A stretch of 64,000 nt of DNA, from the NCBI RefSeq assembly GCF_003943735.1, contig NZ_RJMV01000002.1, forward strand, positions 199,315 through 263,314, given 5' to 3'. Below the pieces are notes generated by a model, which did not search any database, had not been told where the DNA came from, and worked only from the letters and a program-made list of their open reading frames with translations. This document shows, piece by piece, positions 2,090 to 28,524 of the stretch (position 1 is its first letter; every line of letters begins with the position of its first letter). Origin of the DNA: Streptococcus sanguinis (GTDB lineage: Bacteria; Bacillota; Bacilli; Lactobacillales; Streptococcaceae). The position numbers were made by a program, and so were the translations under genes.

Positions 2090-2094
2090 AGAAT

Positions 2095-6771: not shown

Positions 6772-6774
6772 GAT

Positions 6775-6799: not shown

Positions 6800-6859
6800 C
6801 TTTGCAAATTTTGTTTTTATGTCACAATCGTAATAAGAAAATACCTTAAGGAGATAAAA

Positions 6860-7495: not shown

Positions 7496-7496
7496 G

Positions 7497-7519
7497 GAGT
7501 CTTGACGGACTCTTTTTTT
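7497..7519 (+). terminator. Terminator after the broken lipoprotein gene
   Basis: GAGTC and GACTC form a short stem followed by seven T, immediately after the stop codon. Confidence 0.8.
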
Positions 7520-7551
7520 CTTGTTTTGAGTCCAGTATATAATATATTGAT

Positions 7552-7569
7552 TTTGAATAAAAATCGATA
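7552..7569 (+). promoter_or_regulatory. ARG-box-like operator upstream of argG
   Basis: TTTGAATAAAAATCGATA contains TGAATAAAAAT (7554-7564), the core of the Gram-positive ArgR/AhrC operator consensus. It lies about 40 bp upstream of the argG -35 box. ArgR control is inferred from the motif. Confidence 0.55.
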
Positions 7570-7604
7570 AAACGCTTTTATTTTAATAAATATTAAATTT
7601 CCTC

Positions 7605-7633
7605 TTGACATTCGCATTTTCATACAGTAGAAT
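7605..7633 (+). promoter_or_regulatory. argGH promoter
   Basis: TTGACA (7605-7610) and TAGAAT (7628-7633) are spaced by 17 bp. The leader is about 30 nt. Confidence 0.88.
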
Positions 7634-7670
7634 GTTTAAAAATAAAATGTAGAAGGATAGAGGTAATCAT

Positions 7671-8870
7671 ATGATTAAAGAGAAAGTCATTTTAGCATAT
7701 TCCGGTGGCTTGGACACTTCGGTGGCCATTACTTGGCTGAACAAGGATTATGATGTGATCGCGGTTTGTATGGACGTAGGTGAAGGAAATGATTTAGATT
7801 TCATTCATGACAAGGCGCTGAAAGTTGGCGCTATCGAATCACATGTTATTGATGTTAAAGACGAGTTTGCAGAAGACTACGTCTTGGTTGCTCTGCAAGG
7901 ACACACCTTCTACGAACGAAAATATCCTCTAGTGTCCGCTCTGAGCCGACCTTTGATTTCTAAGAAATTGGTTGAAATTGCCCACAAGACGGGGGCGACA
8001 ACCATTGCCCATGGCTGTACCGGAAAAGGAAACGATCAGGTACGTTTTGAAGTGGCTATCGCATCCTTGGATCCCAGTCTCAAGGTCATTGCTCCGGTTC
8101 GGGAGTGGAAATGGTCTCGGGAAGAAGAAATTAATTACGCCAAAGCTAATGGTGTGCCAATTCCTGCAGATCTGGATAGTCCTTACTCAGTCGATCAAAA
8201 CCTTTGGGGACGGGCCAATGAGTGCGGAGTCTTGGAAAATCCTTGGAATGAAGCACCGGAAGATGCCTATGATTTGACGGTTGCACCAGAAGCAGCGCCA
8301 GACAGCCCAGTCTATGTAAATATTGACTTTGAGGCAGGTGTACCAGTTGCTTTAGATGGTAAAAAGATGAAGCTGGCGGACTTAATCCTTGAGCTAAATG
8401 ACTTGGCAGGACAACACGGTGTTGGGCGGATTGATCATGTGGAAAACCGTTTGGTAGGGATTAAGTCTCGGGAAATCTATGAATGCCCTGGTGCGGTGAC
8501 TCTCTTAGCTGCCCACAAGGAAATCGAGGATCTGACTCTAGTTAGAGAACTGGTTCATTTCAAACCAATTATCGAAAATGAGTTGTCTAATCTCATCTAC
8601 AATGGCCTCTGGTTTAATCCAGCGACAGAAGCCCTGATTGCCTATCTCAAGTCCACTCAGCAGGTGGTCAATGGCACAGCTAAAGTGAAGCTTTATAAGG
8701 GCTCTGCGACTGTCGTAGCGCGTAAGTCTGACAATTCTCTCTATGATGAAAGTCTGGCTACCTATACCAGTGCAGATACCTTTGACCAGGATGCCGCGAT
8801 TGGTTTTATCAAGCTATGGGGGCTTCCGTCTAAGGTTCACGCAGAGGTCCAGGCTCACAAAGATAAATAG
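7671..8870 (+). CDS. argG: Argininosuccinate synthase
   Basis: This 399-residue enzyme condenses citrulline and aspartate with ATP to argininosuccinate, the penultimate step of arginine biosynthesis. The ATP pyrophosphatase P-loop [12 protein letters not shown] lies at residues 8-19. ARGSS-type motifs such as [14 protein letters not shown] and [12 protein letters not shown] are present. Length matches the family. The ATG follows GAAGGATAGAGG. It is the first gene of a two-gene operon with argH (14-bp gap), preceded by a consensus promoter and an ArgR-box-like sequence. Confidence 0.97.
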
Positions 8871-8884
8871 AAAGGGGCTTTCCT

Positions 8885-10270
8885 ATGGCGAATCATAAAC
8901 TGTGGGGCGGACGTTTTGAAGCCTCTCTGGAAGGCTGGGTAGAAGAATTTGGTGCCAGCATTGGCTTTGACTATCGTCTGGCTCCTTATGATCTGCAAGG
9001 CAGCCTAGCCCATGTCAAAATGCTGGGGCAGACAGGAATCATTGCTCCAGAGGAAGCAGCTGTTATTCAGGCAGGTTTGGAAAAGCTGTTGGCACGTTAT
9101 GAGTCTGGAGAGCTTGAGTTTGATGTCCGTAATGAAGATATTCATATGAATATGGAGGCTCTTCTGACCGAGGAGATTGGGCCAGTGGCTGGTAAGCTTC
9201 ATACGGCTCGCTCTCGTAATGACCAGGTGGCGACAGATATGCACCTTTATCTCAAGGATCAGCTCGGTCAGATTGCGGATAAACTCTTGAATTTGCGTCA
9301 GGTGCTGCTGGACTTGGCTGAGGAGCATGTAGAGACAATCATGCCAGGCTATACCCATCTGCAGCATGCTCAGCCGATTAGCTTTGCCCATCATCTGCTG
9401 GCCTATTATCAGATGTTCAGCCGGGATAGTCAGCGCTTTGCCTTTAATCTGGAGCATACGGATTTGTCTCCTTTGGGAGCGGCGGCTCTGGCGGGGACAA
9501 CATTTCCGATTAACCGAGAGCTGACGGCTGATTTATTGGGCTTCAAAGGCATTTACCACAATTCTTTGGATGCGGTCAGTGATCGAGATTTTATCTTGGA
9601 GTTTCTATCTAACAGCAGCATGCTCATCATGCATCTGTCTCGTCTCTGCGAGGAGCTGATTAACTGGTGCAGCTATGAATATGGCTTTGTCAGTCTGTCA
9701 GACACCTTTAGTACAGGATCATCCATTATGCCGCAAAAGAAAAATCCGGACATGGCGGAGCTGATTCGGGGTAAGAGCGGCCGGGTCTATGGCCATCTCT
9801 TCAGTCTTCTGACGGTTATGAAATCCCTGCCCTTGGCCTATAATAAGGACCTGCAGGAAGACAAGGAAGGCATGTTCGATACAGTAGATACTATCCAAAA
9901 ATCGCTGGATATTATGGCGGGTATGCTGTCTAGTATGACAGTCAATAAGGAAAAAATGCTGGTTTCAACCCAGCAAGACTTCTCTAATGCTACAGAATTG
10001 GCTGACTATCTGGCCAAGAAAGGACTGCCTTTCCGGGAAGCCCATGAGATTGTCGGAAAGTTGGTGCTGGAATGCAGCAAGGCAGGCTATTATCTACAGG
10101 ATATTCCGCTGAGCCGCTATCAAGAAGTGTCATCACTGATTGAGGAAGACATTTATCAAGCGCTTGAGTCTCAGACCGCTGTACAAAAACGGGATTCCCT
10201 TGGCGGGACGGGATTTGCACAGATCCGTCAGGAGTTGGAAAGAGCGAAGAAACAGCTGGAAAAGGAATAA
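8885..10270 (+). CDS. argH: Argininosuccinate lyase
   Basis: This 461-residue member of the fumarase/aspartase superfamily cleaves argininosuccinate into arginine and fumarate. The signature loop [20 protein letters not shown] (about residues 279-298) holds the catalytic serine region. [13 protein letters not shown] and [14 protein letters not shown] are also characteristic. It is translated 14 bp after argG from a GAAAGGGG site and ends in a terminator, so argGH is a complete operon. Confidence 0.97.
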
Positions 10271-10278
10271 GATATAGG

Positions 10279-10308
10279 GAACATCGCAAGGAAATTGCGG
10301 TGTTTTTT
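10279..10308 (+). terminator. Terminator of argGH
   Basis: AACATCGCAA and TTGCGGTGTT pair (one G-T) across a GGAAA loop, followed by TTTT. Confidence 0.88.
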
Positions 10309-10360
10309 AAGTGAATCGACCTTTTAAATATTTGCAAAAACAGCGTCATAGCGGCTCTTA

Positions 10361-10388
10361 TTGGCATTTTCGAAAAATATGGTATAAT
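10361..10388 (+). promoter_or_regulatory. rnpA-yidC promoter
   Basis: TTGGCA (10361-10366) and TATAAT (10383-10388) are spaced by 16 bp, about 30 bp before rnpA. Confidence 0.8.
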
Positions 10389-10418
10389 AGATATAATTTT
10401 GGTGGATGGAGTTGAGTT

Positions 10419-10778
10419 TTGAGAAAAAACTATCGCGTCAAGAGCGAAAAAGATTTTAATGCGATTTTTAAAAGAGGACAGAGTTTTGCTAATCGAAAAT
10501 TTGTCGTTTACATGTTAGAAAAAGAGCAAAAGCATTTTCGAGTTGGAATTTCCGTCAGTAAAAAGCTAGGGAATGCAGTAGTTCGTAATCGTATTAAAAG
10601 AAAAATCCGCCATGTCTTGATGCAGTATCAGAAACAGTTAGTCCAGGCAGACTTCGTAGTTATCGCTCGCAAAGGAGTGGAAGAGTTGGACTACCACCAA
10701 GTTGAACAAAATTTATTGCATGTATTAAAGATTGCTAAACTTTATCAGGAAGGATTCATTTGTGAAACAGAAAAGTAA
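10419..10778 (+). CDS. rnpA: Ribonuclease P protein component
   Basis: This 119-residue basic protein binds the RNase P RNA and helps mature the 5' ends of tRNAs. It has the expected FANRKFVVY and the RNA-binding RNR motif [18 protein letters not shown] at about residues 48-65. The start is a TTG preceded by GGTGGATGGAG. The 3' end overlaps yidC by 17 bp, a common rnpA-yidC arrangement. Here rpmH is not directly upstream but lies about 4 kb away at 14479. Confidence 0.95.
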
Positions 10779-11577
10779 ATTAGGGATTTTGCTGGTTGCC
10801 TCGTTGCTCTTTCTTACAGCCTGCGGAACTAGTCAAGTAACGGCCGATTCACATGGCTTTTGGGAAAAGTTGGTCTATTTCTTTGCGGACACCATTCGTT
10901 TTCTATCCTTTGGTGGAAGCAAGGGGATTGGGATTATTCTCTTTACCTTGATTATCCGGACAGTTCTCCTGCCGGTCTTCCAATTCCAGACGACTTCTTC
11001 GCGCAAGCTGCAGGAAGTACAGCCGCATATCAAGCAGCTACAGGAAAAGTATCCTGGTAAGGATATGGAGAGCAGAACAGCCTTGGCTGAGGAAACTCAA
11101 AAACTCTACAAAGAAATGGGTGTCAATCCTTATGCCTCATTCATTCCGCTCTTTATCCAGATGCCGGTTCTCTTGGCTCTTTTTCAAGCCCTGACTCGGG
11201 TTGAATTTATGAAGACAGGTCACTTCCTCTGGCTCAATCTAGGAGCGACAGATCCGACCTTTATTCTTCCGCTGTTGGCGGCTCTCTTCACTTTCTTCAG
11301 TACATGGCTTTCAAACAAGGCCTTGCCTGAGAGAAATGGCGGGATGACAGTCATGATGTACCTAATGCCAGTGATGATTTTCTTTTTTGCCCTTTATGCA
11401 GCGAGCGGGGTAGCCCTCTACTGGGCGGTCTCAAATGCTTATCAGGTGGTTCAGACCTTACTGCTGAGCAATCCTTTTAAAATCATTGCTGAGCGGGAAG
11501 ACAAGGAACGGTCAGAGCGTCAATTGGAACAGAAAAAGAAACGTGCCCTGAAAAAAGCACAGAAAAAGAAAAAGTAA
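10762..11577 (+). CDS. yidC: YidC/OxaA membrane protein insertase (lipoprotein form)
   Basis: This 271-residue insertase of the YidC1/SpoIIIJ type inserts and folds membrane proteins, alone or with SecYEG. A signal peptide ends in the lipobox LTAC (Cys about residue 22). The 60KD_IMP domain follows with five membrane segments, including [16 protein letters not shown], and [19 protein letters not shown]. The C-terminus is very basic ([14 protein letters not shown]), as in streptococcal YidC proteins that contact the ribosome. GTG at 10762 is the start, with AAGGA inside rnpA. khpB follows 21 bp later. Confidence 0.95.
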
Positions 11578-11598
11578 GTAAGAAGGAGGACTCTTGCA

Positions 11599-12624
11599 AT
11601 GGTTATTTTTACAGGAGCAAGTGTTGAAGAAGCCATTCAAAATGGTTTGAAAACGTTGGATATTCCACGTATGAGAGCGCATATCACTGTTATTTCACGT
11701 GAGAAAAAAGGCTTTTTAGGCTTGTTTGGCAAAAAGCCAGCTCAGGTGGATGTCGAGCCGATTGCTGAGACGACAGTTGTCAAGGCCAATCAAAAGGCTG
11801 TAAAAGGTGTTCCCGAAGAGATTAATGCTCAGAATGAGCCTGTGCAGTCTGTCAGTGAAGCGACGGTTGATTTGGGCCGTGTGGTAGCTGCCATCAAGAA
11901 GGTCGAAGGCGAAGGCGAAGTTATCTCAGATGAGGTCAAGGCTGAAATTCTCAAAAATGACAAGCAAGCCAATACAATTTTAGAAGAGACTGGCACTATT
12001 GATCTTCTCAAGACCAACCAAGCTATTGATGAGTCAATTGCTCAAGCAGAAGAGGGCGATAGCAAGGTTATCTCTTTTGAACAAGCAGCTAAAGACAAGG
12101 CTGAGCCGACAGAAACAGAAGAAAGCTCTTTTGCTGATTTAGGCATCCAAGTCGAAGCAGACTATGATATTGAAGAAGTAGTTGAAAACGTAACGGACTA
12201 CGTTCAGAAAATCGTTGATGAGATGGATGTTGAAGCGGGCATTTCCAGCAGTCACAACCGCCGAACTATCAACATGCAGATTGATACCAATGAACCGGGG
12301 CGCGTGATTGGCTACCACGGAAAAGTCTTGAAAGCTCTGCAGCTCTTGGCGCAAAACTATCTTTATAACCAATATTCTAAGAGCTTCTACATTTCCATTA
12401 ATGTCAATGATTATGTTGAGCATCGAGCTGAAGTGCTGCAAAGCTATGCGCAGAAACTGGCTCAGCGGGCTTTGGAAGACCGACGCGGTCAGCACACAGA
12501 CCCTATGTCTAACAGCGAGCGCAAAATTATCCACCGCATCATCTCTCGCATCGATGGCGTGACTAGCTATTCCGAAGGCGACGAGCCAAACCGCTATGTC
12601 GTTGTGGATATTGACAGCGAATAA
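11599..12624 (+). CDS. khpB: RNA-binding protein KhpB (Jag/EloR)
   Basis: This 341-residue protein has the three-part KhpB layout: a Jag-N domain (residues 1-52, with EKKGFLGLFGKKPAQV), a long acidic linker (about 53-190), a KH-II domain (about 195-270, with GRVIGYHGKVLKALQ) and an R3H domain (about 275-341, with DPMSNSERKIIHR). With KhpA it binds RNA and controls cell elongation and peptidoglycan synthesis in pneumococcus; this is family knowledge. It lies 21 bp after yidC, as usual, and ends at a terminator. Confidence 0.94.
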   Translation: MVIFTGASVEEAIQNGLKTLDIPRMRAHITVISREKKGFLGLFGKKPAQVDVEPIAETTVVKANQKAVKGVPEEINAQNEPVQSVSEATVDLGRVVAAIKKVEGEGEVISDEVKAEILKNDKQANTILEETGTIDLLKTNQAIDESIAQAEEGDSKVISFEQAAKDKAEPTETEESSFADLGIQVEADYDIEEVVENVTDYVQKIVDEMDVEAGISSSHNRRTINMQIDTNEPGRVIGYHGKVLKALQLLAQNYLYNQYSKSFYISINVNDYVEHRAEVLQSYAQKLAQRALEDRRGQHTDPMSNSERKIIHRIISRIDGVTSYSEGDEPNRYVVVDIDSE

Positions 12625-20023: not shown

Positions 20024-21265
20024 ATGATTGTTTTTACAAAAAACAAAAATTTTCGCCAGTTGCTCATCAATCAATGGATTTCAGGTTTTGGAGACGTTGT
20101 TTTTTATTTGGCTTTGATGAACTATGTTTCCGCCTATTCCTTTGCTCCACTTGCGGTTTTATTGATTTCTCTTTCTGAAACGCTACCCCAGTTAATTCAA
20201 GTTTTTACGGGAGTTGCGGCGGACTTTCAAAAGAATCGTATTCATAAATACCTGCTTATACAGTTTAGTAAGGTCGTGCTATATAGCCTGGTAACGTTTT
20301 TGCTTCTTGGACAAGATTTCTCTTTCTTGACTCTGCTTGTGATTTGCCTGATTAACTTTCTGTCGGATAGTCTGAGTTATTTTTCAGGTGCCATGCTGAC
20401 CCCTGTTTATGTAAAGGTGATTGAGCAAGATATGACCTCTGCTATGGGCTTTCGACAGGCTAGTATGAGTCTGGTTCATATTTTGGGGAATCTAGCTGGC
20501 GGTTTTCTCATCGCTTGGATGAGTATTGGAGCTTTGGCAGGACTAAATGCTCTGACATTCTTACTAGCTTACCTTGGTTTTTGGCATATTAGTAAAAGCT
20601 TACAGGATTTAGAACCGGAGCTCAGCAGTGCCAAGGAGCTAAATAGAGAAAATTATTGGCAGCATTTATTGGATTCTCTTAAAGTCTTACTGGGATTGAA
20701 AAATGTTGTGAGGTTATTATTGGTTTCAACCTTTGGACAGGTCACTCTGAATATTCTGACGCCAGTAGCGACTCTTTTGTTGCTGAAAAGGCCTTTTTGG
20801 AATTTGCAGGTTGGTCAGTCCATTGCCGTGTTAATTGTTCTAAGTTCCGCTGGTCTGATCTTAGGAAATATTTTGAGTGGCAGTTTGCTGAAAAAACTTT
20901 CGACGAAGCTTGCTATGTATAGTAGCCAAGTATGTGAAGGTTTTATTCTTTGCGGTTTTTTCTGGCAAAATTTTTTACTTGTCCTGATAGCGAGCTTTGC
21001 TTGCTCTGTTACAGTCGGTCTGCTGAGTCCAAGATTGCAGAAATCTGTTTTCAGCCTAATACCAGAAGAGTCCATGGGAGCTATCCAGTCAGCTATTAAT
21101 TTATTTAGCATGGCTGTTCCTAGTGTTTTATCTATGCTGTTGATAGCTCTTGCCAGCAGTTTGGGGGTTATTTATATTCTCCTCCCGCTTGTGTTAATGC
21201 TGGCACTGTCTTTCTACTTGATTATTCCAATGGAGAACTTGAAGGCAGATTCGGATAGCTGTTGA
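20024..21265 (+). CDS. MFS transporter
   Basis: This 413-residue membrane protein has about 12 hydrophobic segments split into two halves by a polar loop (about residues 195-225, LQDLEPELSSAKELNREN). The first half carries DFQKNRIHKYL, the loop 2-3 position of the major facilitator superfamily, and ISETLPQLIQ-like sequence. It starts at ATG 20024 behind AAGGAGATG. Its own consensus promoter and the upstream ArsR-type regulator suggest inducible efflux; the substrate cannot be told from sequence. Confidence 0.85.
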   Translation: MIVFTKNKNFRQLLINQWISGFGDVVFYLALMNYVSAYSFAPLAVLLISLSETLPQLIQVFTGVAADFQKNRIHKYLLIQFSKVVLYSLVTFLLLGQDFSFLTLLVICLINFLSDSLSYFSGAMLTPVYVKVIEQDMTSAMGFRQASMSLVHILGNLAGGFLIAWMSIGALAGLNALTFLLAYLGFWHISKSLQDLEPELSSAKELNRENYWQHLLDSLKVLLGLKNVVRLLLVSTFGQVTLNILTPVATLLLLKRPFWNLQVGQSIAVLIVLSSAGLILGNILSGSLLKKLSTKLAMYSSQVCEGFILCGFFWQNFLLVLIASFACSVTVGLLSPRLQKSVFSLIPEESMGAIQSAINLFSMAVPSVLSMLLIALASSLGVIYILLPLVLMLALSFYLIIPMENLKADSDSC

Positions 21266-21325
21266 ATGGCAGCTATCTTATTTTTCTGCTTTGAAGAGAC
21301 TTCTGATTTTTCAGGTCATTTTTGG

Positions 21326-21331
21326 TATAAT
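21326..21331 (+). promoter_or_regulatory. Original tatD promoter, now cut off from tatD
   Basis: TGGTATAAT (extended -10, TATAAT 21326-21331) precedes AAGGAAGTAAACC and the old tatD ATG at 21361. The element inserted just downstream, so the promoter now fires into the element's left end. Confidence 0.65.
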
Positions 21332-21360
21332 AAAGGACAGGAAATACAAGGAAGTAAACC

Positions 21361-21393
21361 ATGAAGATTTTTGATACGCATACTACTGGCTGA
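21361..21393 (+). pseudogene. Displaced 5' end of tatD
   Basis: ATG at 21361 starts MKIFDTHT, nearly identical to the start of intact tatD at 27754 (MNIFDTHTHLNV). After the crossover the frame reads TG and stops at TGA (21391-21393). This is the original first nine or so codons of tatD left upstream of the inserted element. Confidence 0.85.
21367..21383 (+). repeat. Left attachment site (attL)
   Basis: ATTTTTGATACGCATAC matches the right copy at 27760-27776 in 16 of 17 positions. The first 11 bases are identical. Confidence 0.85.
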
Positions 21394-21433
21394 AAAACTG
21401 AATATATCAGTATTTTAAAAAAAGAGATAAAAA

Positions 21434-21441
21434 ATTAACCA
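21434..21441 (+). repeat. Possible integrase arm-type site, left end
   Basis: ATTAACCA, also found at the right end (27646-27653) along with two ACTAACCA copies (27623-27630, 27635-27642). The two end regions share this motif, as expected for integrase arm sites. This is an inference. Confidence 0.4.
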
Positions 21442-21479
21442 AGAAAAGAACCAAAGGAAAGCAAGTGTAGCATGCAAAA

Positions 21480-21514
21480 AGAGGAATTCGTAATGAGTTC
21501 CTCTTTTAGTCTAT
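21480..21514. terminator. Terminator with TTCGTAATGAG loop (left copy)
   Basis: AAAAGAGGAA and TTCCTCTTTT pair around TTCGTAATGAG. It lies at the 3' end of the minus-strand HTH gene. The loop is identical to that of the terminator at 23437-23470, while the stems differ by compensated changes. Confidence 0.8.
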
Positions 21515-21838
21515 ACTTTTTACTATCTCATTAAAAGATGAAATAAGTTTTACCTGTTTATCATTTGATAATTCAGCAAGATTATCTACGAGTGTATCAA
21601 GAGATACAGAATTATCAGAGAGTGGGAAGTTAAAAAATTCTTCCACCGTCATATCTAAGGCGGTTAGCACTTTTTCAAGTGTTTGGATTTTAAAGTCGTA
21701 TTTCAAATTTTCAATATTTTGAATAGCCTTGATACCTAAGCCTGCATCATTTGAAAGTTGCTCTTGACTCAGTTTCTTTTCTTTGCGGCATTCTCTGATT
21801 CTATTTGATATGTATTTCTGTAATTGGTTAGCTTTCAT
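21506..21838 (-). CDS. Cro/C1-type HTH regulator of the element
   Basis: This 110-residue protein has an N-terminal XRE-type helix-turn-helix: ISNRIRECRKEKKLSQEQLS, then AGLGIKAIQNIE and LEKVLTALDMTVEEFFNF. The C-terminal 40 residues (SDNSVSLDTLVDNL) are helical and may dimerise. The start is ATG 21838 with GAGG 9 bp upstream; longer in-frame starts lack a ribosome site. It is divergent from the membrane protein at 21986, with about 147 bp between them. It may be a repressor of the element or of the membrane-protein gene. Confidence 0.85.
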   Translation of the reverse strand: MKANQLQKYISNRIRECRKEKKLSQEQLSNDAGLGIKAIQNIENLKYDFKIQTLEKVLTALDMTVEEFFNFPLSDNSVSLDTLVDNLAELSNDKQVKLISSFNEIVKSID

Positions 21839-21985
21839 TCTTACAATCCTCTTTTGTATCATTTTACTATCCTTTTTACATGAAATTAAGTACAACAAAC
21901 AGTCTAAAAAATAGAAAAAGTGTTGTTTAGCAATACTTTTTGTGATAAAATGGATAAAAAACGGTACAAGAGGAGGTTGTACAAG

Positions 21986-23437
21986 ATGAATGAAAAGGAA
22001 TGGATAGAATATTTCGAGCTTATCCATGGACGAAAACCTAAACCTGAAGAGTTTTCACAAGCGTTAAAAAATGGAGAATTTATAGATGATAGGGGCAATA
22101 AAAAATCTAATATAGGTAGAAAGAAATATTATTTCGCTTTACTTTTAATGTCTTTCATATCATTGGCGCTGTATGTATATACGTGCATCGACTTTGATCC
22201 GGGTTTATCTTTCTTGAATATTATAGAAGGGATTACTGTAGCTCCAGTTTTAATCGTAATGCTTATTTTTGGTTTGAGAGGATTCATAAGAACACCAAAA
22301 CAATTTTTTAAAAGTAAGATATTATTTCTCTTAGTCTTTTTAGCATTTTCGATAGAATTTGTCATGAGATTTTTATTATTAGGTTCAAGTGCAATATTTG
22401 GGTGGACAGATAGAGATATAAGTAGGATTCTTTTTGAAGTTATATTAATGCCACTGCCAGTATTTATAACGTTCTTTTTATTGTTGCGGATGAAACATTT
22501 GGATAAGATAGTTTTTGAAAGTTACTTCAAAAAAATCATAGTCGCTTTATTTGTTATCTGTGTAATGTTGCCCATAGGAACAGTAAGCTTTATGTATTAT
22601 AGCTATCAAAATTCTTTTGAACAACAAATGCAAAGAAAAACATGGTTTTCACTGAGAGTAGGAGTGGAGCTAGAGAAGTGGGAATTCACATCTTCGTATA
22701 AGCTTCATAAATCGGGGATTGATAATGAATATGATAATAATTTAGACTATACTTCTTATTCATCTTATTCAGAATTTAAAGAAGAAAATAATATCGTTTT
22801 ATCTCAGAAAGAAATAATCTCAGATTTCAAAAAAAATTTTAAAGAAATAAAAGATACTAGGATAAAAGATAAAGATTTAAAATTTATCTTAATTCAAGAT
22901 GAAGATAATAATCGTTATAGCATGGTGTTTTTAAAACTTAATAAAAATCAAATTTATTATTTATATATATTTGATAAACAAACACTACCAGGGATATTAT
23001 TTACTCCATATGTGACAAATCTGAGCGGAAATTATAAAATAAACGAAGTGTTCGGATCTAAAACATCTGATGAAGAGAATCAAAGAAAGATCTCTAATTT
23101 TCCTGTATGGGAGTTTTCACATGATAAAGTAATTTCTAATAAAAAAACTCGTTACTTGATGAGCTATGAACAGGCAATTTCTTCTTATAATTTATATCCA
23201 AATGATAAATTAAAATCAAAAGAGGCTATCATAGAGTTGTTAAAAAGCAGGGGATATCAATTAAAGGACACTAACAATATATATGTCCTTGTAGAAGGAT
23301 ATGATATTTCACGAAGTTTTTTTATTGTTCCTGTAGAGAACAGAAATAAAATTTTTATGGGTTATCTTAGAAATGATAGCTCTAATGAAGAGAACAATAT
23401 ATTGATTCAATTAGAAAAGATTCAATTGAAAGAATGA
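21986..23437 (+). CDS. Membrane protein with N-terminal EWIEYFELIHGRKP motif
   Basis: This 483-residue protein has a short cytoplasmic N-terminus with EWIEYFELIHGRKPKPEEF, a motif found at the front of various streptococcal membrane proteins. It is followed by five or so hydrophobic helices (about residues 45-205). The C-terminal 270 residues are hydrophilic, Lys/Asp/Asn-rich and probably extracellular. The start is ATG 21986 behind AGAGGAGG. Very AT-rich codon use fits the element. It is divergent from the HTH gene and both are enclosed by matching terminators, so the two form one cassette. Function is unknown; it could be an accessory, immunity or exclusion function, but nothing in the sequence decides this. 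Confidence 0.72.
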   Translation: MNEKEWIEYFELIHGRKPKPEEFSQALKNGEFIDDRGNKKSNIGRKKYYFALLLMSFISLALYVYTCIDFDPGLSFLNIIEGITVAPVLIVMLIFGLRGFIRTPKQFFKSKILFLLVFLAFSIEFVMRFLLLGSSAIFGWTDRDISRILFEVILMPLPVFITFFLLLRMKHLDKIVFESYFKKIIVALFVICVMLPIGTVSFMYYSYQNSFEQQMQRKTWFSLRVGVELEKWEFTSSYKLHKSGIDNEYDNNLDYTSYSSYSEFKEENNIVLSQKEIISDFKKNFKEIKDTRIKDKDLKFILIQDEDNNRYSMVFLKLNKNQIYYLYIFDKQTLPGILFTPYVTNLSGNYKINEVFGSKTSDEENQRKISNFPVWEFSHDKVISNKKTRYLMSYEQAISSYNLYPNDKLKSKEAIIELLKSRGYQLKDTNNIYVLVEGYDISRSFFIVPVENRNKIFMGYLRNDSSNEENNILIQLEKIQLKE

Positions 23438-23470
23438 AAAAATAGGGATTCGTAATGAGTCCCTATTTTC
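23437..23470. terminator. Terminator with TTCGTAATGAG loop (right copy)
   Basis: AAAATAGGGA and TCCCTATTTT pair around TTCGTAATGAG. It serves the membrane-protein gene (+) and the convergent gene at 23473 (-). Confidence 0.85.
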
Positions 23471-23472
23471 GG

Positions 23473-23916
23473 TTATTTTATCCATGAAGAATGAAACACA
23501 TCTTCAGGTAAGTTGGAAGTGAGCTCTACGTTTAAATACAGGTGCCCGCTTGCGTTTGAAAAGACACTTCCCGTTTGGGCGATTTTTCGTATGAGAGTAA
23601 TGGGTGCTATAACAGTCTCTAAATGGGATAGCTCATTTTTTATAAAGCTATAACTGATATAGGGCACTATCTCTTCGGGATAGGATTTTACGAAATTATC
23701 GAGTTTAGTTACTGCTTTGTAATCAGCTTTATATTGTGGACTTTCTTTATCAGAAAATTGCTTAGCCAAAGGATAGATAAGTAAATCTGCTTCACCTTCT
23801 TTATGTGCAAGAATATATCCTGATTCATCTAAGAGTTCATATCCTTCAAATTCTAGCGTTGCTTTTGTAATTGATAAGCATAAGTCTTTAACTGTTTTTC
23901 TTGATAGCTTAGCCAT
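23473..23916 (-). CDS. Unrecognised element protein (147 residues)
   Basis: This 147-residue soluble protein starts at ATG 23916 behind AAGGAG. No signal peptide or membrane helix is seen. The N-terminal part is basic (MAKLSRKTVKDLCLSITKAT); the centre contains GYILAHKEGEADLLIYP, reminiscent of a small nuclease-like or DNA-binding fold, but without convincing catalytic residues. The rest is mixed with hydrophobic strands (ETVIAPITLIRKIAQTGSVF). It is transcribed away from the replication genes from a divergent promoter near 23950. Function is unknown. Confidence 0.6.
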   Translation of the reverse strand: MAKLSRKTVKDLCLSITKATLEFEGYELLDESGYILAHKEGEADLLIYPLAKQFSDKESPQYKADYKAVTKLDNFVKSYPEEIVPYISYSFIKNELSHLETVIAPITLIRKIAQTGSVFSNASGHLYLNVELTSNLPEDVFHSSWIK

Positions 23917-23985
23917 TGGATTCTCCTTGTTATTTATGTCTATAGAAATATTATAACACAAGAAACAAAAAATAGAAATAAATTC

Positions 23986-24014
23986 TTGACAACATAAAAA
24001 TTTAGTGATATAAT
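23986..24014 (+). promoter_or_regulatory. Promoter of the element's replication genes
   Basis: TTGACA (23986-23991) and TATAAT (24009-24014) are separated by 17 bp, a near-consensus promoter for the gene at 24111 and those after it. Confidence 0.9.
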
Positions 24015-24020
24015 CTTTTT

Positions 24021-24088
24021 AGAATCTAAAAAATAAATTAGATTCTATCAAAATATTTTTCCAGAAACTATTATATGTATTAGTTTCT
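24021..24088 (+). promoter_or_regulatory. Two tandem inverted repeats downstream of the element promoter
   Basis: AGAATCTAA (24021-24029) pairs with TTAGATTCT (24038-24046), and AGAAACTA (24063-24070) pairs with TAGTTTCT (24081-24088). They are similar sequences located just after the transcription start. They could be repressor operators or leader hairpins. Confidence 0.6.
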
Positions 24089-24110
24089 AAAAACTAGGAG
24101 GAGGTCTATC

Positions 24111-24488
24111 ATGGCTTTAAAAAATCTTTCTCACTTCACTGCGTTCAACGCCCCAGAATTTCTTAAACGAAAAGAACTTCGCTTCATTTCTGCTACTCGT
24201 TGGATAGAAAAAATTGATAAGAGCTCTGAAGTTGAAAAGGGGGTAAAGGTGGGACTACTTATTTTCTCTGACGATAGTGACTATCCCAACGAAAAAACGA
24301 ATATTGGAGAACAGCTTACTGTTAAAGTTCCTTATGGAGCAATCGAGGACTATGCTGATTATATGCCTATGGGCACAATTTGTGAAATCGTTGATATTGA
24401 AAAAGCTTCGGTTTACGGTGAATATCGTAATCAACTGTCAATCACAGCTAAAGTCATTCGAGCTGATGAAGAGATTGTTGAATTGTAG
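24111..24488 (+). CDS. Unrecognised element protein (125 residues)
   Basis: This 125-residue soluble protein is the first gene after the strong element promoter, with an AGGAGGAGG site. Alternating strands such as EQLTVKVPYGAIEDY and QLSITAKVIRADEEIVEL give a beta-rich look compatible with an OB-fold. Its place directly ahead of the replication genes would suit a single-stranded-DNA-binding protein. That is an inference from position and strand pattern only; I recognise no family motif. Confidence 0.6.
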   Translation: MALKNLSHFTAFNAPEFLKRKELRFISATRWIEKIDKSSEVEKGVKVGLLIFSDDSDYPNEKTNIGEQLTVKVPYGAIEDYADYMPMGTICEIVDIEKASVYGEYRNQLSITAKVIRADEEIVEL

Positions 24489-24502
24489 AAAAGAGGTTAA
24501 TT

Positions 24503-25069
24503 ATGCCATCGGTTATAGAAGAGCTACCTAGGAAAATTGCTTACACGGTCGTCAAAGTTTTTGGATTTTGTAAGCAAAAAATCATGGAGTATCAACAACA
24601 GCAGTTAGAAGAAGAGAAACAAAGACGATGGAATAATTTTCTGGGTCAAACACGTTTTAAATTAATGAAGTTGGTAAAAGAGCAGATTAGTGATGATCAG
24701 TTTGATTATGAATTACAACCTGATTTTGAAAATCAAGAAATCATTCAAGCTGATGGGAGCAAGTCAATTTATCGTATTCGCATAGAGGATAAAAAAGTAC
24801 CAATTTGTGAGTTTGATAAAGCAGGAAGAGAATTTCAAGTGGCTTGTATTGTGTTTCGGTTTACTATTTTTGGTGAGTTAGATTCCGACATTTTGCTCAA
24901 AATGAAAGAAAAATGGGTCTATTATATGAAAAACAATGGATTGTATGGTATCGCTGATACTTATAAAAAAGATGATTTACATCGTTTAGTGTTTATCATC
25001 TATGAAAAAATAAATGAGCGAGCGGTTAAAAGTGCTTTGTTTCATTTGAAAAACTCACAAAATTATTGA
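24503..25069 (+). CDS. Unrecognised element protein (188 residues)
   Basis: This 188-residue soluble protein starts at ATG 24503 behind AGAGG, 14 bp after the previous gene. A basic, Gln/Glu-rich helix (about residues 25-50, KQKIMEYQQQQLEEEKQR) precedes a mixed domain with IYRIRIEDKKVPICEFD and VACIVFRFTIFGELDS. It is co-transcribed with the 125-residue protein and lies directly upstream of the origin-like hairpins and the rep gene. It may act in replication or mobilisation. Function is not recognised. Confidence 0.6.
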   Translation: MPSVIEELPRKIAYTVVKVFGFCKQKIMEYQQQQLEEEKQRRWNNFLGQTRFKLMKLVKEQISDDQFDYELQPDFENQEIIQADGSKSIYRIRIEDKKVPICEFDKAGREFQVACIVFRFTIFGELDSDILLKMKEKWVYYMKNNGLYGIADTYKKDDLHRLVFIIYEKINERAVKSALFHLKNSQNY

Positions 25070-25103
25070 TATGAGAATTAAATTCTGTTTTATGCCGTGA
25101 AAG

Positions 25104-25215
25104 TTATTGACAGTAGGCTAAGATAAATTAGACTGGTTGAGGCGGTGCGGTCGAACTCTGTTCGCCCGTGCCGGCGCAATCAGTTTAGTCATCTTAGGGA
25201 ACCTGTTGTCAATAA
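25104..25215 (+). repeat. 112-nt multi-step hairpin upstream of rep
   Basis: Nested arms pair as follows: TTATTGACA (25104-25112) with TGTCAATAA (25207-25215); CTAAGAT (25118) with ATCTTAG (25191); AGACTGGTTG (25130) with CAATCAGTTT (25177); CGGTGCGG (25143) with CCGTGCCG (25166); CGAAC with GTTCG at the tip. The mismatches are G-T pairs when the plus strand folds, so plus-strand ssDNA or RNA would be much more stable than the minus strand. GC content at the tip is far above the surroundings. It is likely a replication-origin or packaging-type structure, or a structured RNA. Confidence 0.8.
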
Positions 25216-25249
25216 ATCATGGAATAAATTAGAATTTAATGATTACAAT

Positions 25250-25279
25250 TTTGACGCTCTTAACTTGATAAGCGTCAAA
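25250..25279 (+). other. Putative double-strand origin (nick-site hairpin)
   Basis: TTTGACGCT (25250-25258) and AGCGTCAAA (25271-25279) form a perfect 9-bp stem around a 12-nt loop, CTTAACTTGATA. The loop contains CTTGATA, the same heptamer as the nick region of pC194/pUB110-type rolling-circle plasmids. It lies 27 bp before the rep start. Origin function is inferred from structure, motif and position. Confidence 0.6.
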
Positions 25280-25305
25280 CAAAAGCACGAGAAGATAGAG
25301 GTCGT

Positions 25306-26157
25306 ATGTCAGAAATTGGGAGCAACAAACTAGTAAAATCTTATATTTACGGAGATACAGTTGAAATGACTACAGCTGACGGACAACAAAAACAGACCAT
25401 CAAGGTAATATCTGGAAAACGTTATGTAAATCTTGAAACAGGTGAGATTTATGACATGAATACATCAAATAGTACACGATTTGATAATCTTAAATCGGTC
25501 AAGCAAACGATGAAAAAACTGCGTCGCTTGGTTGCTCATAACTTTACTGGTGGATACAATCAACTATGGATAACTTTAACATATAGGGAGCATGTTATTG
25601 ATACTGAAATAGTTTATAAAGACTTTAAAAAATTTATTCGTAAAATTCGCAAAGAATACGGTCATGTAGAATATATTGTTGTTATTGAGCCACAAGCTAG
25701 TAGAAGATGGCATTTACATGTGCTGATGAAGAATACTACAACTTTGACAATTCCTAATGAAATTCTGGCAGACTTGTGGCAGAAAGGTTTTACAAAGACC
25801 AAACGATTGAGAAGGGCTGATAAGGTTGGAAATTACTTGATAGCTTATCTATCTAATTTACAGATAGGTGATGAAGATTCTCAGAGCAAAGCAACCGTTA
25901 AGGGAGCGAGACTATACATGTATCCAAAAGGGATTCGTATTTATAGAACCAGCCGAGGGATAAAAAAGCCTTTGGAGTTAACAGCAACCAAAGGAGAGAT
26001 AGTGGAATCTTATAAAATCAATAGCCCGCCAAATTTTTCACGTACTACAAAGCATGAGACGCCGTATGGTGTGAAAGAATACACAACGGAGTTTTACGAT
26101 AATATAAAAAGCCTGTCAGACACTTTTAGCGGAGCAACTGACAAGCCAAATGAGTGA
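25306..26157 (+). CDS. HUH rolling-circle replication initiator (two-tyrosine type)
   Basis: This 283-residue protein shows the three HUH endonuclease motifs in order. Motif 1 is LWITLTY (residues 87-93). Motif 2 is WHLHVLM, with metal-binding H136 and H138. Motif 3 is GNYLIAYLSN, with Y177 and Y181 (Y-x3-Y). Two tyrosines spaced by three residues are typical of the phiX174 gpA/filamentous-phage gpII-like superfamily, in contrast to single-Tyr plasmid Reps. Such enzymes nick the origin, stay bound to the 5' end and re-join the circle. The start is ATG 25306 behind GAGG. Two large hairpins lie just upstream, one with a nick-like loop. A role as mobilisation relaxase is also possible. Confidence 0.82.
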   Translation: MSEIGSNKLVKSYIYGDTVEMTTADGQQKQTIKVISGKRYVNLETGEIYDMNTSNSTRFDNLKSVKQTMKKLRRLVAHNFTGGYNQLWITLTYREHVIDTEIVYKDFKKFIRKIRKEYGHVEYIVVIEPQASRRWHLHVLMKNTTTLTIPNEILADLWQKGFTKTKRLRRADKVGNYLIAYLSNLQIGDEDSQSKATVKGARLYMYPKGIRIYRTSRGIKKPLELTATKGEIVESYKINSPPNFSRTTKHETPYGVKEYTTEFYDNIKSLSDTFSGATDKPNE

Positions 26158-26205
26158 CAAAAGAAAACTTTTATCAACTCTATTATAGCAGAAAAAGGGA
26201 GTATT

Positions 26206-26415
26206 ATGGAACATTTATACAAAACGAAAAAAGGTATTTCAGAATTATTTGATATCCCTTTAAAAACATTAAATAATGATTTGACTGAGATGAGGCGGAT
26301 TGAGCAGTTTCAAGATTTTATTTTGAAGCCCTCCCATAAGAGGGTTTATATAAGTATTGAGGGATATGAGCGCTTTTTGCAATACAAACAAAAGAAGTAT
26401 GAGGAAGCTATGTAG
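26206..26415 (+). CDS. xis: Excisionase-like small DNA-binding protein
   Basis: This 69-residue protein has a predicted winged-helix DNA-binding pattern: KGISELFDIPLKTLNNDLTEMRR followed by a strand LKPSHKRVYISIEGYERFL. Small HTH proteins immediately upstream of a tyrosine integrase are usually excisionases that direct the integrase towards excision. AAGGGAG precedes the ATG at 26206. It lies 48 bp after rep and 64 bp before int, with a promoter-like TATAAT and a small hairpin in the latter gap. The assignment rests on size, HTH pattern and position. Confidence 0.75.
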   Translation: MEHLYKTKKGISELFDIPLKTLNNDLTEMRRIEQFQDFILKPSHKRVYISIEGYERFLQYKQKKYEEAM

Positions 26416-26421
26416 TTATGT

Positions 26422-26447
26422 TATAATTAAGCTATGCTACATAGCTT
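26422..26447 (+). promoter_or_regulatory. Extended -10 and hairpin before the integrase
   Basis: TGTTATAAT (TATAAT 26422-26427) is followed directly by an 8-bp inverted repeat AAGCTATG/CATAGCTT (26429-26447). This is a possible integrase promoter with an operator or attenuator. Confidence 0.5.
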
Positions 26448-26479
26448 TCCTTTATTTATGATAATAAAAAGGAGAGATG

Positions 26480-27619
26480 ATGTTTTATAAAGAGTTAGAT
26501 AATGGTAAGTATCGCTATTATGAGAAATTTTATGATAAGCGTGATAAAAAGTGGAAACAGGTGACTGTTACTTTGAAATCAAGATCTAGAGTTTCTCAAG
26601 CAGAAGCAAAAAGGCGGTTAGCAACTAAGATAGATAAAATTCTTATGACACCGACAAAAGAAGAGCTGAAGCAACAAAAATATGAAGCGACTACGTTTAG
26701 TCAGCTGTTGGCAGAATGGAAAACTATTCGAGCTAGTGAAATTAAATCATCAAGTTTTAGAAGCGAAATGAAATGTTTACAATTTTTTGCTGATGCGGTA
26801 GGTGACTTGAAGTTGTCAGAATATACCACCCAGCAAATACAAAGCTACCTAATGAGTTTAAATGTTGAAAATTCTACAAGGAAAAATCGAAAGATTTATC
26901 TTAATGGTATCTTTGGCTATGCTGAGAAGGTCGGATATATCACCAAGAGTCCTGTCAAAAATGTAGTGATTCCTAAGCAAAAGGCTGATTATGAAAAACT
27001 AAAAAAAGCGAAGGAACATTTTATCAGCAGAGAGGAATTAGGAAAAGTTTTGTCGTATTGCGAAAATCATAATAAAGATAGACGCTATACATTAGCAATG
27101 GAGTTCATTTTTTTAACAGGTCTTCGCTTTGCTGAATTTATCGGTGTTCGCTATCAAGATATAGATTTTGAAAATTGTCTTTTGAAGATTGATCATACGA
27201 TTGACTATGTGGCTCACAAGTATGACGAGCGAGTACTTCAAACTACTAAGACGGTAGGTTCTGTTAGAACGATAATTCTGAGTGAACGTTGTATAGAGAT
27301 TGTTTTATATTTTCGTGAGCATTGCCGTGATGAAGAGTTTGTTTTTGTCACGGAGCAAGGAAATATTATGAGACAACCTTTATTATACAAATTCATCAAG
27401 AACAGTTGCGATACAGTTCTAGGTGAAGGAAAGGCATATAATATACATATGCTTCGGCATTCCCACATCAGCTTACTTGCTGAACTAGGATTACCTATTA
27501 AAGCGATTATGGAGCGTGTAGGTCACCGTGATGAGTCCATTACTTTACAGGTATATAGCCATGTTACGGAGAATATTCAAGACGAAGTAAGAACGAAGCT
27601 CAATCAAATTCACCTGTAA
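26480..27619 (+). CDS. int: Tyrosine site-specific integrase
   Basis: This integrase of about 379 residues has an N-terminal arm-binding domain (about 1-60), a core-binding SAM-like domain (about 70-165) and a catalytic domain. The catalytic residues are visible: R in LTGLRFAEF (about 216), H and R in HMLRHSH (about 323 and 326), H in VGHRDES (about 349) and the nucleophile Y in LQVYSHV (about 359). Two overlapping in-frame ATG codons exist; 26480 is better placed from GGAG than 26477. It reads towards the right end, 134 bp from tatD, as expected for an enzyme acting on the flanking att sites. Family: Tn916/phage-type integrases. Confidence 0.93.
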   Translation: MFYKELDNGKYRYYEKFYDKRDKKWKQVTVTLKSRSRVSQAEAKRRLATKIDKILMTPTKEELKQQKYEATTFSQLLAEWKTIRASEIKSSSFRSEMKCLQFFADAVGDLKLSEYTTQQIQSYLMSLNVENSTRKNRKIYLNGIFGYAEKVGYITKSPVKNVVIPKQKADYEKLKKAKEHFISREELGKVLSYCENHNKDRRYTLAMEFIFLTGLRFAEFIGVRYQDIDFENCLLKIDHTIDYVAHKYDERVLQTTKTVGSVRTIILSERCIEIVLYFREHCRDEEFVFVTEQGNIMRQPLLYKFIKNSCDTVLGEGKAYNIHMLRHSHISLLAELGLPIKAIMERVGHRDESITLQVYSHVTENIQDEVRTKLNQIHL

Positions 27620-27622
27620 AGG

Positions 27623-27653
27623 ACTAACCAAAAAACTAACCATAAATTAACCA
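27623..27653 (+). repeat. Three TAACCA repeats at the right end of the element
   Basis: ACTAACCA (27623), ACTAACCA (27635) and ATTAACCA (27646) are spaced about 11-12 bp, one helical turn, between int and attR. These are plausible integrase arm-binding sites; a matching ATTAACCA is near the left end. Confidence 0.5.
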
Positions 27654-27753
27654 AAGTGGTGAGAAACAATAGGAAATACAGGGAAATATAGAAAATTAAA
27701 ATTCTGTATTTCCAATGGTTAGAGAAGTATAGGGAAGAAGGAGGAAACAAAGT

Positions 27754-28524
27754 TTGAACATTTTTGATACACATACGCATTTAAATGTGGAAGAATTTGC
27801 TGGTCGAGAGGCAGAGGAGCTGCAGCTGGCTACAGAAATGGGCATCAGCAAAATAAATATTGTCGGTTTTGACCGACCGACCATTGAGCGCGCCTTGGAG
27901 CTGGCAGATAGCTATGATCAGCTTTATGCTACGATTGGCTGGCATCCGACTGAGGCGGGGACTTATGATGAGGCGGTGGAAGCCTATCTGTTGGACAAGC
28001 TTGGTCACCCCAAGGTGGTGGCTCTGGGCGAGATTGGGCTGGACTATCACTGGATGACAGCTCCAAAGGATGTTCAGGAGCGGGTGTTTCGACGCCAAAT
28101 CCAGCTCTCCAAAGAGCTGAACCTACCCTTTGTTGTTCACACACGTGACGCATTGGAGGACACCTATGAGATTATCAAGAGTGAGGGCGTAGGTCCTCGT
28201 GGCGGTATCATGCACTCTTATTCGGGTTCTTTGGAAATGGCAGAGCGCTTTATCGAGCTAGGGATGATGATTTCCTTTTCTGGGGTCGTCACTTTTAAAA
28301 AAGCGATAGATATTCAGGAGGCGGCTCAGAATCTGCCTTTGGACAAAATCCTCGTTGAGACTGATGCGCCTTACTTGGCGCCTGTTCCCAAGCGTGGTCG
28401 AGAAAACAAAACAGCCTATACCCGCTATGTTGTAGAGAAAATTGCTGAGCTTCGTGGGCTGCCTGTCGAAGAAGTAGCGCAAGCGACCTATGATAATGCA
28501 AAGAAGGTGTTTGGGCTTGACTGA
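27754..28524 (+). CDS. tatD: TatD-family metal-dependent hydrolase
   Basis: This 256-residue TIM-barrel hydrolase of the TatD DNase family has metal-ligand motifs at FDTHTHLN (residues 4-11), ALGEIGLDYHW (about 91-101), PFVVHTRDA (about 127) and HSYSGS, and the late ETDAPYLAP. It starts with TTG 27754 behind GAAGGAGG, and this whole start region was supplied by the inserted element. The original start (MKIF) lies 6.4 kb upstream. Residue 2 is Asn instead of Lys, otherwise the joint is seamless. rnmV overlaps its 3' end by 8 bp. Confidence 0.94.
   Translation: MNIFDTHTHLNVEEFAGREAEELQLATEMGISKINIVGFDRPTIERALELADSYDQLYATIGWHPTEAGTYDEAVEAYLLDKLGHPKVVALGEIGLDYHWMTAPKDVQERVFRRQIQLSKELNLPFVVHTRDALEDTYEIIKSEGVGPRGGIMHSYSGSLEMAERFIELGMMISFSGVVTFKKAIDIQEAAQNLPLDKILVETDAPYLAPVPKRGRENKTAYTRYVVEKIAELRGLPVEEVAQATYDNAKKVFGLD
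27760..27776 (+). repeat. Right attachment site (attR)
   Basis: ATTTTTGATACACATAC is the second copy of the 21367-21383 repeat, lying inside the first codons of functional tatD. Confidence 0.85.

What the first reader, a model, noticed from the sequence alone, without database searches (positions are those of the whole stretch)
21367..27776. Small integrated replicon inserted into the first codons of tatD
Both ends carry ATTTTTGATAC-R-CATAC, a copy of tatD codons 3-8. The left copy retains the old tatD promoter and start; the right copy joins the full tatD frame to an element-supplied ribosome site and TTG start. Between them are int, an xis-like gene, a two-tyrosine HUH Rep and four unrecognised genes, but no conjugation or capsid genes. 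Insertion at a gene's 5' end with repair of the start is a little-described target choice compared with tRNA or 3'-end sites.
Basis: partly seen in the sequence, partly recalled or inferred. Interest (0 to 1): 0.85.

Follow-up and report, generated by a model that had tools for sequence, protein, structure and literature searches.

The report
Mobile replicon inserted in tatD start
A 6.4-kb mobile DNA element sits in the first codons of a Streptococcus gene and supplies that gene with a new start; this kind of element and this target were already described in 2017, and what is added here is a map of its likely replication-start site and of how it keeps the host gene readable.

Summary
A 17-bp repeat (one G/A difference) bounds 21367-27776. 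The left copy keeps tatD's own ATG; the right copy joins tatD to a ribosome site and TTG start on the element side. A relative (G009) has the empty site: the joined flanks match it in one 1430-nt alignment. Of 18 integrase rows at 70% identity or more, 17 lie beside tatD and the 18th is cut by its contig end; all 17 have a TTG or ATG on the int side of the repeat. The site is not little described: IME_SanC238_tatD (5' end of tatD, PHA00330-type relaxase, no coupling protein) was tabulated in 2017, two tatD IMEs in S. salivarius in 2020, a Lactococcus element at spx/tatD in 2025. So: a new member of a known kind, an integrative and mobilizable element whose transfer is untested. Added here: a likely rolling-circle nick site (25260-25271), whose core ACTTGATAA is in the window and 18 of 18 relatives, with AACTTGAT in 11 of 13 plasmid relatives examined, of 29 found; a possible OB-fold gene; a conserved int promoter that may read into tatD; and a DNA block at the 3' end of rep shared by two unrelated rep families.

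The parts
21361..21393 (+). old tatD start at attL: native ATG then a 10-codon dead-end frame (MKIFDTHTTG-stop)
   Evidence: same layout (7-13 codons) in the 13 of 17 tatD elements whose attL was found
21367..21383 (+). attL copy of the 17-bp direct repeat
21437..21453 (+). left-end AACCA repeats (21437, 21449), possible integrase arm sites
   Evidence: role inferred
21477..21507 (.). inverted repeat at the 3' end of the HTH gene, possible terminator
   Evidence: the terminator scan of 21200-21520 did not list it
21506..21838 (-). HTH_3 regulator, 110 aa
   Evidence: a match in 13 of 17 tatD elements, window included
21986..23437 (+). 483-aa protein, cargo of unknown function (membrane-like by eye)
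23473..23919 (-). 148-aa protein, cargo; 100% match in L066 only
24111..24488 (+). 125-aa protein, model resembles OB-fold SSB/PriB proteins; at the position of HelP/OrfM in ICEs
   Evidence: model pLDDT 83; Z 6.2-6.9 to PriB, SSB, ICESt3 OrfM; no Foldseek match at E 1e-3
24503..25069 (+). 188-aa protein where some relatives carry an FtsK-family ATPase
   Evidence: function unknown
25089..25228 (+). long hairpin 5' of rep
25250..25279 (+). inverted repeat TTTGACGCT/AGCGTCAAA with CTTGATA (25264-25270) in its loop; TTAACTTGATAA 25260-25271: proposed nick site (double-strand origin or oriT)
25306..26157 (+). HUH Rep or relaxase, REP_ORF2-G2P, HLH and YLIAY motifs
26111..26146 (+). conserved inverted-repeat block at the 3' end of rep, shared with an unrelated rep family
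26206..26415 (+). xis-like gene
   Evidence: phrog_904
26405..26447 (+). inverted repeat around an extended -10 (TGTTATAAT, 26419-26427): proposed int promoter reading on into tatD
   Evidence: promoter read by eye
26477..27619 (+). tyrosine integrase
27624..27653 (+). three TAACCA repeats, proposed integrase arm sites
   Evidence: three TAACC repeats in 17 of 17; the third ends in C instead of A in L067 and L068
27740..27756 (+). ribosome site (GGAGG) and TTG start of tatD on the element side of the repeat
27760..27776 (+). attR copy of the direct repeat
27754..28524 (+). tatD reconstituted on the element's start

Best explanation
This is an integrative and mobilizable element of the tatD 5'-end kind. 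Its integrase recombines a circular form with the first codons of tatD (shown by comparison; the reaction is inferred). The element's right end carries a ribosome site and an in-frame TTG or ATG, so tatD stays translatable (shown in sequence). Its transcription most likely comes from a conserved extended -10 promoter between xis and int that reads through int into tatD and rnmV (inferred). The left end keeps the old promoter side and ATG and stops translation within 7-13 codons. When excised with help of Xis, the Rep would nick TTAACTTG^ATAA (25260-25271) at the loop of an inverted repeat, start rolling-circle replication with the 125-aa protein as accessory factor, and double as relaxase for transfer through a conjugative element in the same cell (inferred; transfer is only proposed in the literature).
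For: Repeat and anatomy. Empty site. 17 of 18 integrase rows at 70% identity or more lie beside tatD; the 18th (G244) stops at its contig end; the other 7 of 25 rows, at 36-39%, have no tatD in the fetched flanks. Start on the int side in 17 of 17 (12 TTG, 5 ATG), attL dead-end frame in the 13 found. Three arm-type repeats in 17 of 17. TGTTATAAT between the same arms in 16 of 18, TGGTATAAT in 2; no terminator-like site in 27400-27800. ACTTGATAA 5' of rep in 17 of 17 (window and 16 loci) and 2 of 2 more; several of these loci are near-identical. AACTTGAT on the rep-sense strand in 11 of 13 plasmid records examined (of 29 found), 0 of 13 on the other strand, 0.77 expected in all. CTTGATA is named in print as the conserved dso nick site of Rep_1-like Reps (PMC10378824, passage) and ends the ori sequence of the pC194/pUB110 family (PMC5031790, passage). 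ICESt3 OrfM is in the structure list of the 125-aa model; OrfL/OrfM take part in a relaxosome (PMC12614216, passages). Published counterpart IME_SanC238_tatD.
Against: No excision, replication or transfer data. Exact CTTGATA was absent 5' of rep in 12 of 13 plasmids; 11 of the 13 have CTTGATT, found by a second test made after the first failed. CTTGATA alone is not specific: the element has it 4 times on the + and 2 times on the - strand, and AACTTGAT also once on the - strand at 26749. The scan found no + strand promoter in 27400-27800 and none in 21200-21520, so both promoters named are read by eye. No MobT and no VirB4-type ATPase over cut-off in this draft genome, so no resident helper is shown; four FtsK-domain places were not classified. 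The 125-aa protein is not linked to DUF961 by sequence, and its structure matches (Z under 8) could be a common arrangement. In the 4 of 17 elements without a found attL, that the start belongs to the element rests on position only.
Confidence: 0.85

Rival explanations
1. An integrated rolling-circle plasmid that replicates after excision but is not mobilized by conjugation; it spreads by transformation or transduction.
For: Rep relatives in the plasmid collection: 29 records, 27 typed non-mobilizable. No coupling protein in the element and no MobT or VirB4 over cut-off in this genome.
Against: Relatives with the same Rep carry an FtsK-family ATPase gene between the 125-aa-type gene and rep (L054, L061, L060), the layout of conjugative elements; the published class is proposed to use TcpA-type helpers.
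Confidence: 0.3
2. A phage satellite packaged by a helper phage.
For: Small size, 5'-end site as in SpyCI, HTH-xis-int layout; 3 phage records (named bajarodino virus) hold a distant Rep relative.
Against: No capsid, terminase or packaging match, though four proteins are unidentified. The Rep/ATPase layout of relatives points to conjugation. The two viral contigs with the nick block show no Rep-like gene by eye.
Confidence: 0.05
3. A decayed remnant that can no longer move.
For: No coupling protein; some relatives are broken (L077 integrase split; G068 integrase with one stop; L059 rep tail out of frame).
Against: int, xis, rep, both att sites and the origin block are intact here; G282 carries a close copy (Int 97%, xis 100%) beside a different tatD (78%), which suggests recent movement.
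Confidence: 0.1

Closest known systems
IME_SanC238_tatD (Streptococcus anginosus; PMC5357655, PMC5704250)
   Same: Tyrosine integrase, 5' end of tatD, PHA00330 Rep/relaxase, coupling-protein column empty (table rows seen as passages).
tatD-site IMEs of S. salivarius (PMC7563491)
   Same: Tyrosine integrase; tatD among the 3'- or 5'-end protein-gene targets, n = 2 (passage).
   Different: Not compared by sequence.
Tn5276-like elements in Lactococcus (PMC12502582)
   Same: Inserted between spx and tatD; figure legend marks the tatD start codon and att sites (passages).
   Different: 12.1- and 19.3-kb inserts with a sucrose operon; integrase not compared. No relative of the window integrase outside Streptococcus at 1e-70 in a sample of 246 genomes of the order.
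SpyCI in the 5' end of mutL (PMC3430984)
   Same: 5'-end insertion in a repair operon of Streptococcus, splitting it from its promoter (passages).
   Different: Phage-like island; integration silences mutL, save in one strain rescued by an element promoter; here the element also carries a start codon.
Phage HK022 at torS (PMC6814406)
   Same: An element promoter replaces the host promoter (passages).
   Different: E. coli prophage; promoter mapped by experiment; no start-codon replacement in the passages seen.
ICESt3/Tn916/ICEBs1 mobilization module (PMC9371924, PMC12614216)
   Same: OB-fold proteins with a rolling-circle-type relaxase; nick in the loop of an inverted repeat (passages).
   Different: MobT relaxase with CT'AA nick; here REP_ORF2-G2P with a CTTGATA block and no coupling protein.

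Membership tests
Integrative and mobilizable element (IME) | own integrase and defined att repeats with an empty site elsewhere | tested here: met
Integrative and mobilizable element (IME) | a relaxase or RCR-initiator gene | tested here: met
   PF23343 E 3e-20, HLH and YLIAY; activity not tested
Integrative and mobilizable element (IME) | mobilization by a conjugative helper | not testable with these tools
   needs a mating assay; no MobT or VirB4 over cut-off in the draft genome
Integrative and mobilizable element (IME) | no mating-pore genes of its own | tested here: met
   no such match among the element's proteins; four proteins unidentified
tatD-site IME (IME_SanC238_tatD type) | tyrosine integrase specific for the tatD 5' end | tested here: met
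   17 of 18 rows at 70% identity or more beside tatD, the 18th cut by its contig end
tatD-site IME (IME_SanC238_tatD type) | PHA00330 Rep | not tested
   that NCBI model is not in the libraries used; PHROG 3419 rolling-circle initiation E 5e-20
CTTGATA-type rolling-circle initiators (pC194/pUB110-like) | two-tyrosine HUH Rep with CTTGATA 5' of rep | tested here: met
   in the window and 18 IME loci; in plasmid relatives the form is CTTGATT (11 of 13); cleavage not tested
DUF961 (HelP/Orf22/Orf23) proteins, for the 125-aa gene | sequence match to DUF961 | tested here: not met
   hhalign probability 0.1%; no DUF961 hit in 10 members scanned
OB-fold ssDNA-binding proteins, for the 125-aa gene | OB fold by model | tested here: inconclusive
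   top VIA rows are PriB, SSB, OrfM at Z 6.2-6.9; no Foldseek E at 1e-3
Phage satellite (PICI/SpyCI) | packaging or capsid-interference genes | tested here: inconclusive
   no such match, but four proteins are unidentified

The most novel reading that the evidence does not exclude
These elements keep their host operon running as part of their own transcription unit: one palindrome-framed promoter drives int and, through a start codon carried at the element's end, tatD-rnmV. Transfer and replication start at a nick site (TTAACTTG^AT) that this Rep class shares with small plasmids across Firmicutes. A 36-bp DNA block at the 3' end of rep marks a fixed seam at which unrelated rep genes are exchanged.
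Probability: 0.4. Interest if true: 0.5.

Novelty: new member of a known kind. Interest (0 to 1): 0.35.

Why it matters
The element itself is ordinary in kind. The useful addition is a testable origin: PHA00330-class Reps were proposed as relaxases in 2017, and in the passages and sections I read no oriT or dso was given for them. A conserved, position-fixed nick candidate with an independent match in plasmids lets one test by a simple cleavage assay whether one protein could serve both replication and transfer. The tatD junction is also a clean natural case of an element taking over ribosome site and start codon, and probably the promoter, of a host operon.

Tried and rejected
(1) 188-aa gene as a truncated TcpA: profile comparison negative; its model (pLDDT 67) has no PDB match at E 1e-3 and a best Z of 6.2 to a designed protein. 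(2) 125-aa gene as a DUF961 homologue by sequence: negative. (3) Idea that the long hairpin belongs only to elements without a coupling protein: wrong. It is in 14 of 14 elements with the 188-aa gene and also in L111 and L112, which have a P-loop-type gene in that position; it was not seen in the 260 bases 5' of rep in L054, L060, L061. Support for the pairing is modest: 10 distinct sequences, 55 pairs, 98.4% of cells paired (0 of 500 shuffles), 4 pairs with both sides changed (14 of 500), further pair types 21 (40 of 500). No Rfam match in 21200-28000. (4) Rep tail as a conserved C-terminal peptide: set aside in favour of a DNA site, because in L059 the block is kept while its frame is lost. 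(5) Nick block in viral contigs: two hits, no Rep-like gene by eye. (6) Exact CTTGATA in plasmid relatives: 1 of 13, and that one 18 bases before a match that begins at query residue 41, so probably inside rep; the broader block was tested afterwards. Of 29 plasmid records 13 were fetched. (7) PADLOC: HTH-type hits for the regulator and one weak match for the 483-aa protein (E 0.0097). (8) A literature search for the Tn5276 core repeat held no paper with all terms; that its repeat is TTTTTG is recalled only. A search for tatD with attB, start codon, integrase and prophage listed 20 of 72 papers, none of the 20 with tatD. (9) The fetched stretch of G023 (L065) showed no tatD match and was dropped from the empty-site comparison.
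Full report
OBSERVATION. The repeat, its coordinates and the two junctions are as described. Left junction: native ATG-AAG, then the repeat, then a stop after 10 codons. Right junction: GGAGG, spacer, TTG-AAC, then the repeat and the whole tatD frame (TatD_DNase). Between them lie an HTH gene, a 483-aa gene, a 148-aa gene, a 125-aa gene, a 188-aa gene, rep, xis and int. The window lies in G000 contig 2 of a 36-contig draft genome. I take it as Streptococcus from its relatives: seven named loci with a related integrase are all Streptococcus.

EMPTY SITE. In G009 the left flank matches at 94% over nearly all of 300 bases; four further genomes of the 41 searched had a match, one of them the window's own and three of about 40-47 bases. 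A joined left-flank/tatD query aligns to G009 as a single 1430-nt match at 91.5%; the true window gives two blocks that overlap at the repeat. G017 and G008 show the same empty layout; in all three tatD starts ATG-AAA-ATTTTTGATAC.

THE INTEGRASE IS TIED TO tatD. A search of 284 Streptococcus genomes gave 25 rows in 23 genomes at 1e-60, with at most 6 candidates scored in most genomes. Of 18 rows at 70% identity or more, including the window, one with a stop inside (G068) and one split gene (G231, L077), 17 lie next to tatD and the 18th (G244) ends with its contig inside int. Of the 7 rows at 36-39%, none has tatD in the fetched flank. In a sample of the order, 3 of 246 genomes matched at 1e-70, all Streptococcus, 1 of 64 genera. 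In 17 of 17 an in-frame start lies on the int side of the repeat (12 TTG, 5 ATG). In the 13 whose left end was found the native ATG leads to 7-13 codons and a stop; the left end was not found in L053, L060, L073 and L077. Where both ends are known, elements measure 5987 to 10455 bp (13 cases). Differences between paired left and right copies (L057 and L072 in the 3' part, L067 at base 9) suggest, but do not fix, an exchange in the first eight or so bases of the repeat.

RECOMBINATION AND EXPRESSION SIGNALS. Three TAACC repeats follow int in 17 of 17; the third reads TAACCC in L067 and L068, TAACCA elsewhere. Between xis and int an 11-bp perfect inverted repeat (26405-26415/26437-26447) frames TGTTATAAT, kept in 16 of 18; the other two (L060, L077) have TGGTATAAT, and one arm is changed in L060. 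No terminator-like site was found in 27400-27800. I infer that int and tatD share this promoter. The consensus scan found no promoter on the + strand next to tatD and none at the old tatD side, so both promoters are readings by eye.

REPLICATION MODULE. Rep matches REP_ORF2-G2P and PHROG rolling-circle families. HUH and YxxxY motifs are present in 19 of 19 IME Reps (window included) and, by the same pattern, in 11 of 13 plasmid Reps; the pattern missed L091 and L133. In 147 genomes, 20 had a Rep match: 10 rows at 58-100% identity and 12 at 28-32%. 5' of rep, ACTTGATAA is kept in 17 of 17 (window and 16 loci) and 2 of 2 more, also where the upstream DNA does not align well (L054, L060, L061). 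The longer TTAACTTGATAA is in 18 of these 19; L054 has TTTACTTGATAA. Some loci are near-identical, so these are not 19 independent cases. In the window CTTGATA (25264-25270) lies in the 12-base loop of a 9-bp perfect inverted repeat. CTTGATA alone is not specific: 4 copies on the + and 2 on the - strand of the element.

TEST OUTSIDE THE FAMILY. Of 29 plasmid records with a Rep relative 13 were fetched. Exact CTTGATA failed (1 of 13). The best ungapped match to the block pointed to TTAACTTGATT, and AACTTGAT then proved to lie on the rep strand in 11 of 13 records, 67-176 nt before the rep match (L134 only if its record is circular), with 0 of 13 on the other strand and 0.77 expected in all; L132 and L133 lack it. 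This is close to the CTTGATA dso nick site of Rep_1-like Reps (PMC10378824, passage) and the pC194/pUB110 ori (PMC5031790, passage).

HAIRPIN. A long hairpin (25089-25228) is far more stable than shuffles (z -7.1 for 25090-25240). It recurs in 14 of 14 elements with the 188-aa gene (10 distinct sequences) and in L111 and L112, but was not seen in L054, L060, L061. Covariation is modest. A single-strand origin or a Rep-binding site are possible roles; neither was tested.

ACCESSORY GENES. The order 125-aa gene / coupling ATPase or 188-aa gene / Rep recalls that of ICEs (ICE gene order recalled). L054, L061 and L060 have an FtsK-family ATPase there; L112 has an AAA-domain match and L111 a P-loop-like ORF (by eye) without a Pfam hit. 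The 125-aa model resembles PriB, SSB and ICESt3 OrfM (Z 6.2-6.9 in the top 25 rows, rmsd 3.4-5.0), without a Foldseek match at 1e-3. In ICESt3 one of the two OB-fold proteins interacts with the relaxase and PcrA (PMC12614216, passages). By analogy the 125-aa protein would assist Rep and PcrA.

MODULE EXCHANGE. L067 and L068 have the same xis-int at tatD but an unrelated 457-aa Rep (RNA_helicase in both; Rep_OBD over its cut-off in L068 and just under it in L067). Both rep families end in the DNA block TGTCAGAYACTTTTNNNGGAGNNDCTGACA. Allowing 3 mismatches it was found once each in 19 of 284 genomes, with 0 matches of the backward control: 16 of the 18 genomes with a tatD-type integrase (not G078, G231) and 3 (G013, G167, G256) with other integrases. 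It is absent from G008, whose Rep is 58% identical. It is kept as DNA where its frame is lost (L059), so a DNA role or an exchange seam is likelier than a peptide tail.

PRIOR WORK. IME_SanC238_tatD is in the tables of PMC5704250 (passages) and tatD among the targets in PMC5357655 (passages and sections 13 and 16); two tatD IMEs in PMC7563491 (passages); the Lactococcus element in PMC12502582 (passages). Insertions with promoter effects: PMC3430984 and PMC6814406 (passages). A whole-word search for IME, tatD, Streptococcus and promoter gave one paper, the 2017 review. For an origin of PHA00330-class Reps one search listed 10 of 244 papers, of which four hold the word PHA00330: three I had already seen in part and PMC7168690, which I did not open. 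'Not in print' is therefore not claimed.

VERDICT. Real, correctly delimited, and a member of a known kind. The origin prediction, the shared promoter and the rep 3' block are the parts worth a bench test.

Noticed in passing
window 26111-26146; L067, L068, L054, L111, L112: A 36-bp inverted-repeat DNA block at the 3' end of rep is shared by two unrelated rep families and by elements with, by eye, three kinds of integrase.
   Followed up: partly
window 25089-25228: A 140-nt hairpin 5' of rep (z -7.1) with no Rfam match, present with or without a coupling-type gene, not seen in three more distant elements.
   Followed up: partly
L066 (G282) 5633-12077: A close relative (Int 97%, xis and 148-aa gene 100%) sits beside a different tatD (78%), suggesting recent transfer between species.
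   Followed up: no
L077 (G231) 1621-3502: Split integrase that lacks its middle next to tatD: a decayed tatD element where tatD still has an ATG.
   Followed up: no
window 24503-25069: The 188-aa protein occupies the coupling-protein position in most tatD elements and is conserved (45-64% identity to the window in six aligned) but has no recognised family.
   Followed up: partly
L091, L127-L131, L134-L137 (plasmids): TTAACTTGATT is a shared block before rep in 10 of 13 small plasmid records examined, from Staphylococcus, Caldicellulosiruptor, Ruminococcus, Exiguobacterium, Anoxybacillus, Lysinibacillus, Enterococcus and uncultured bacteria.
   Followed up: partly
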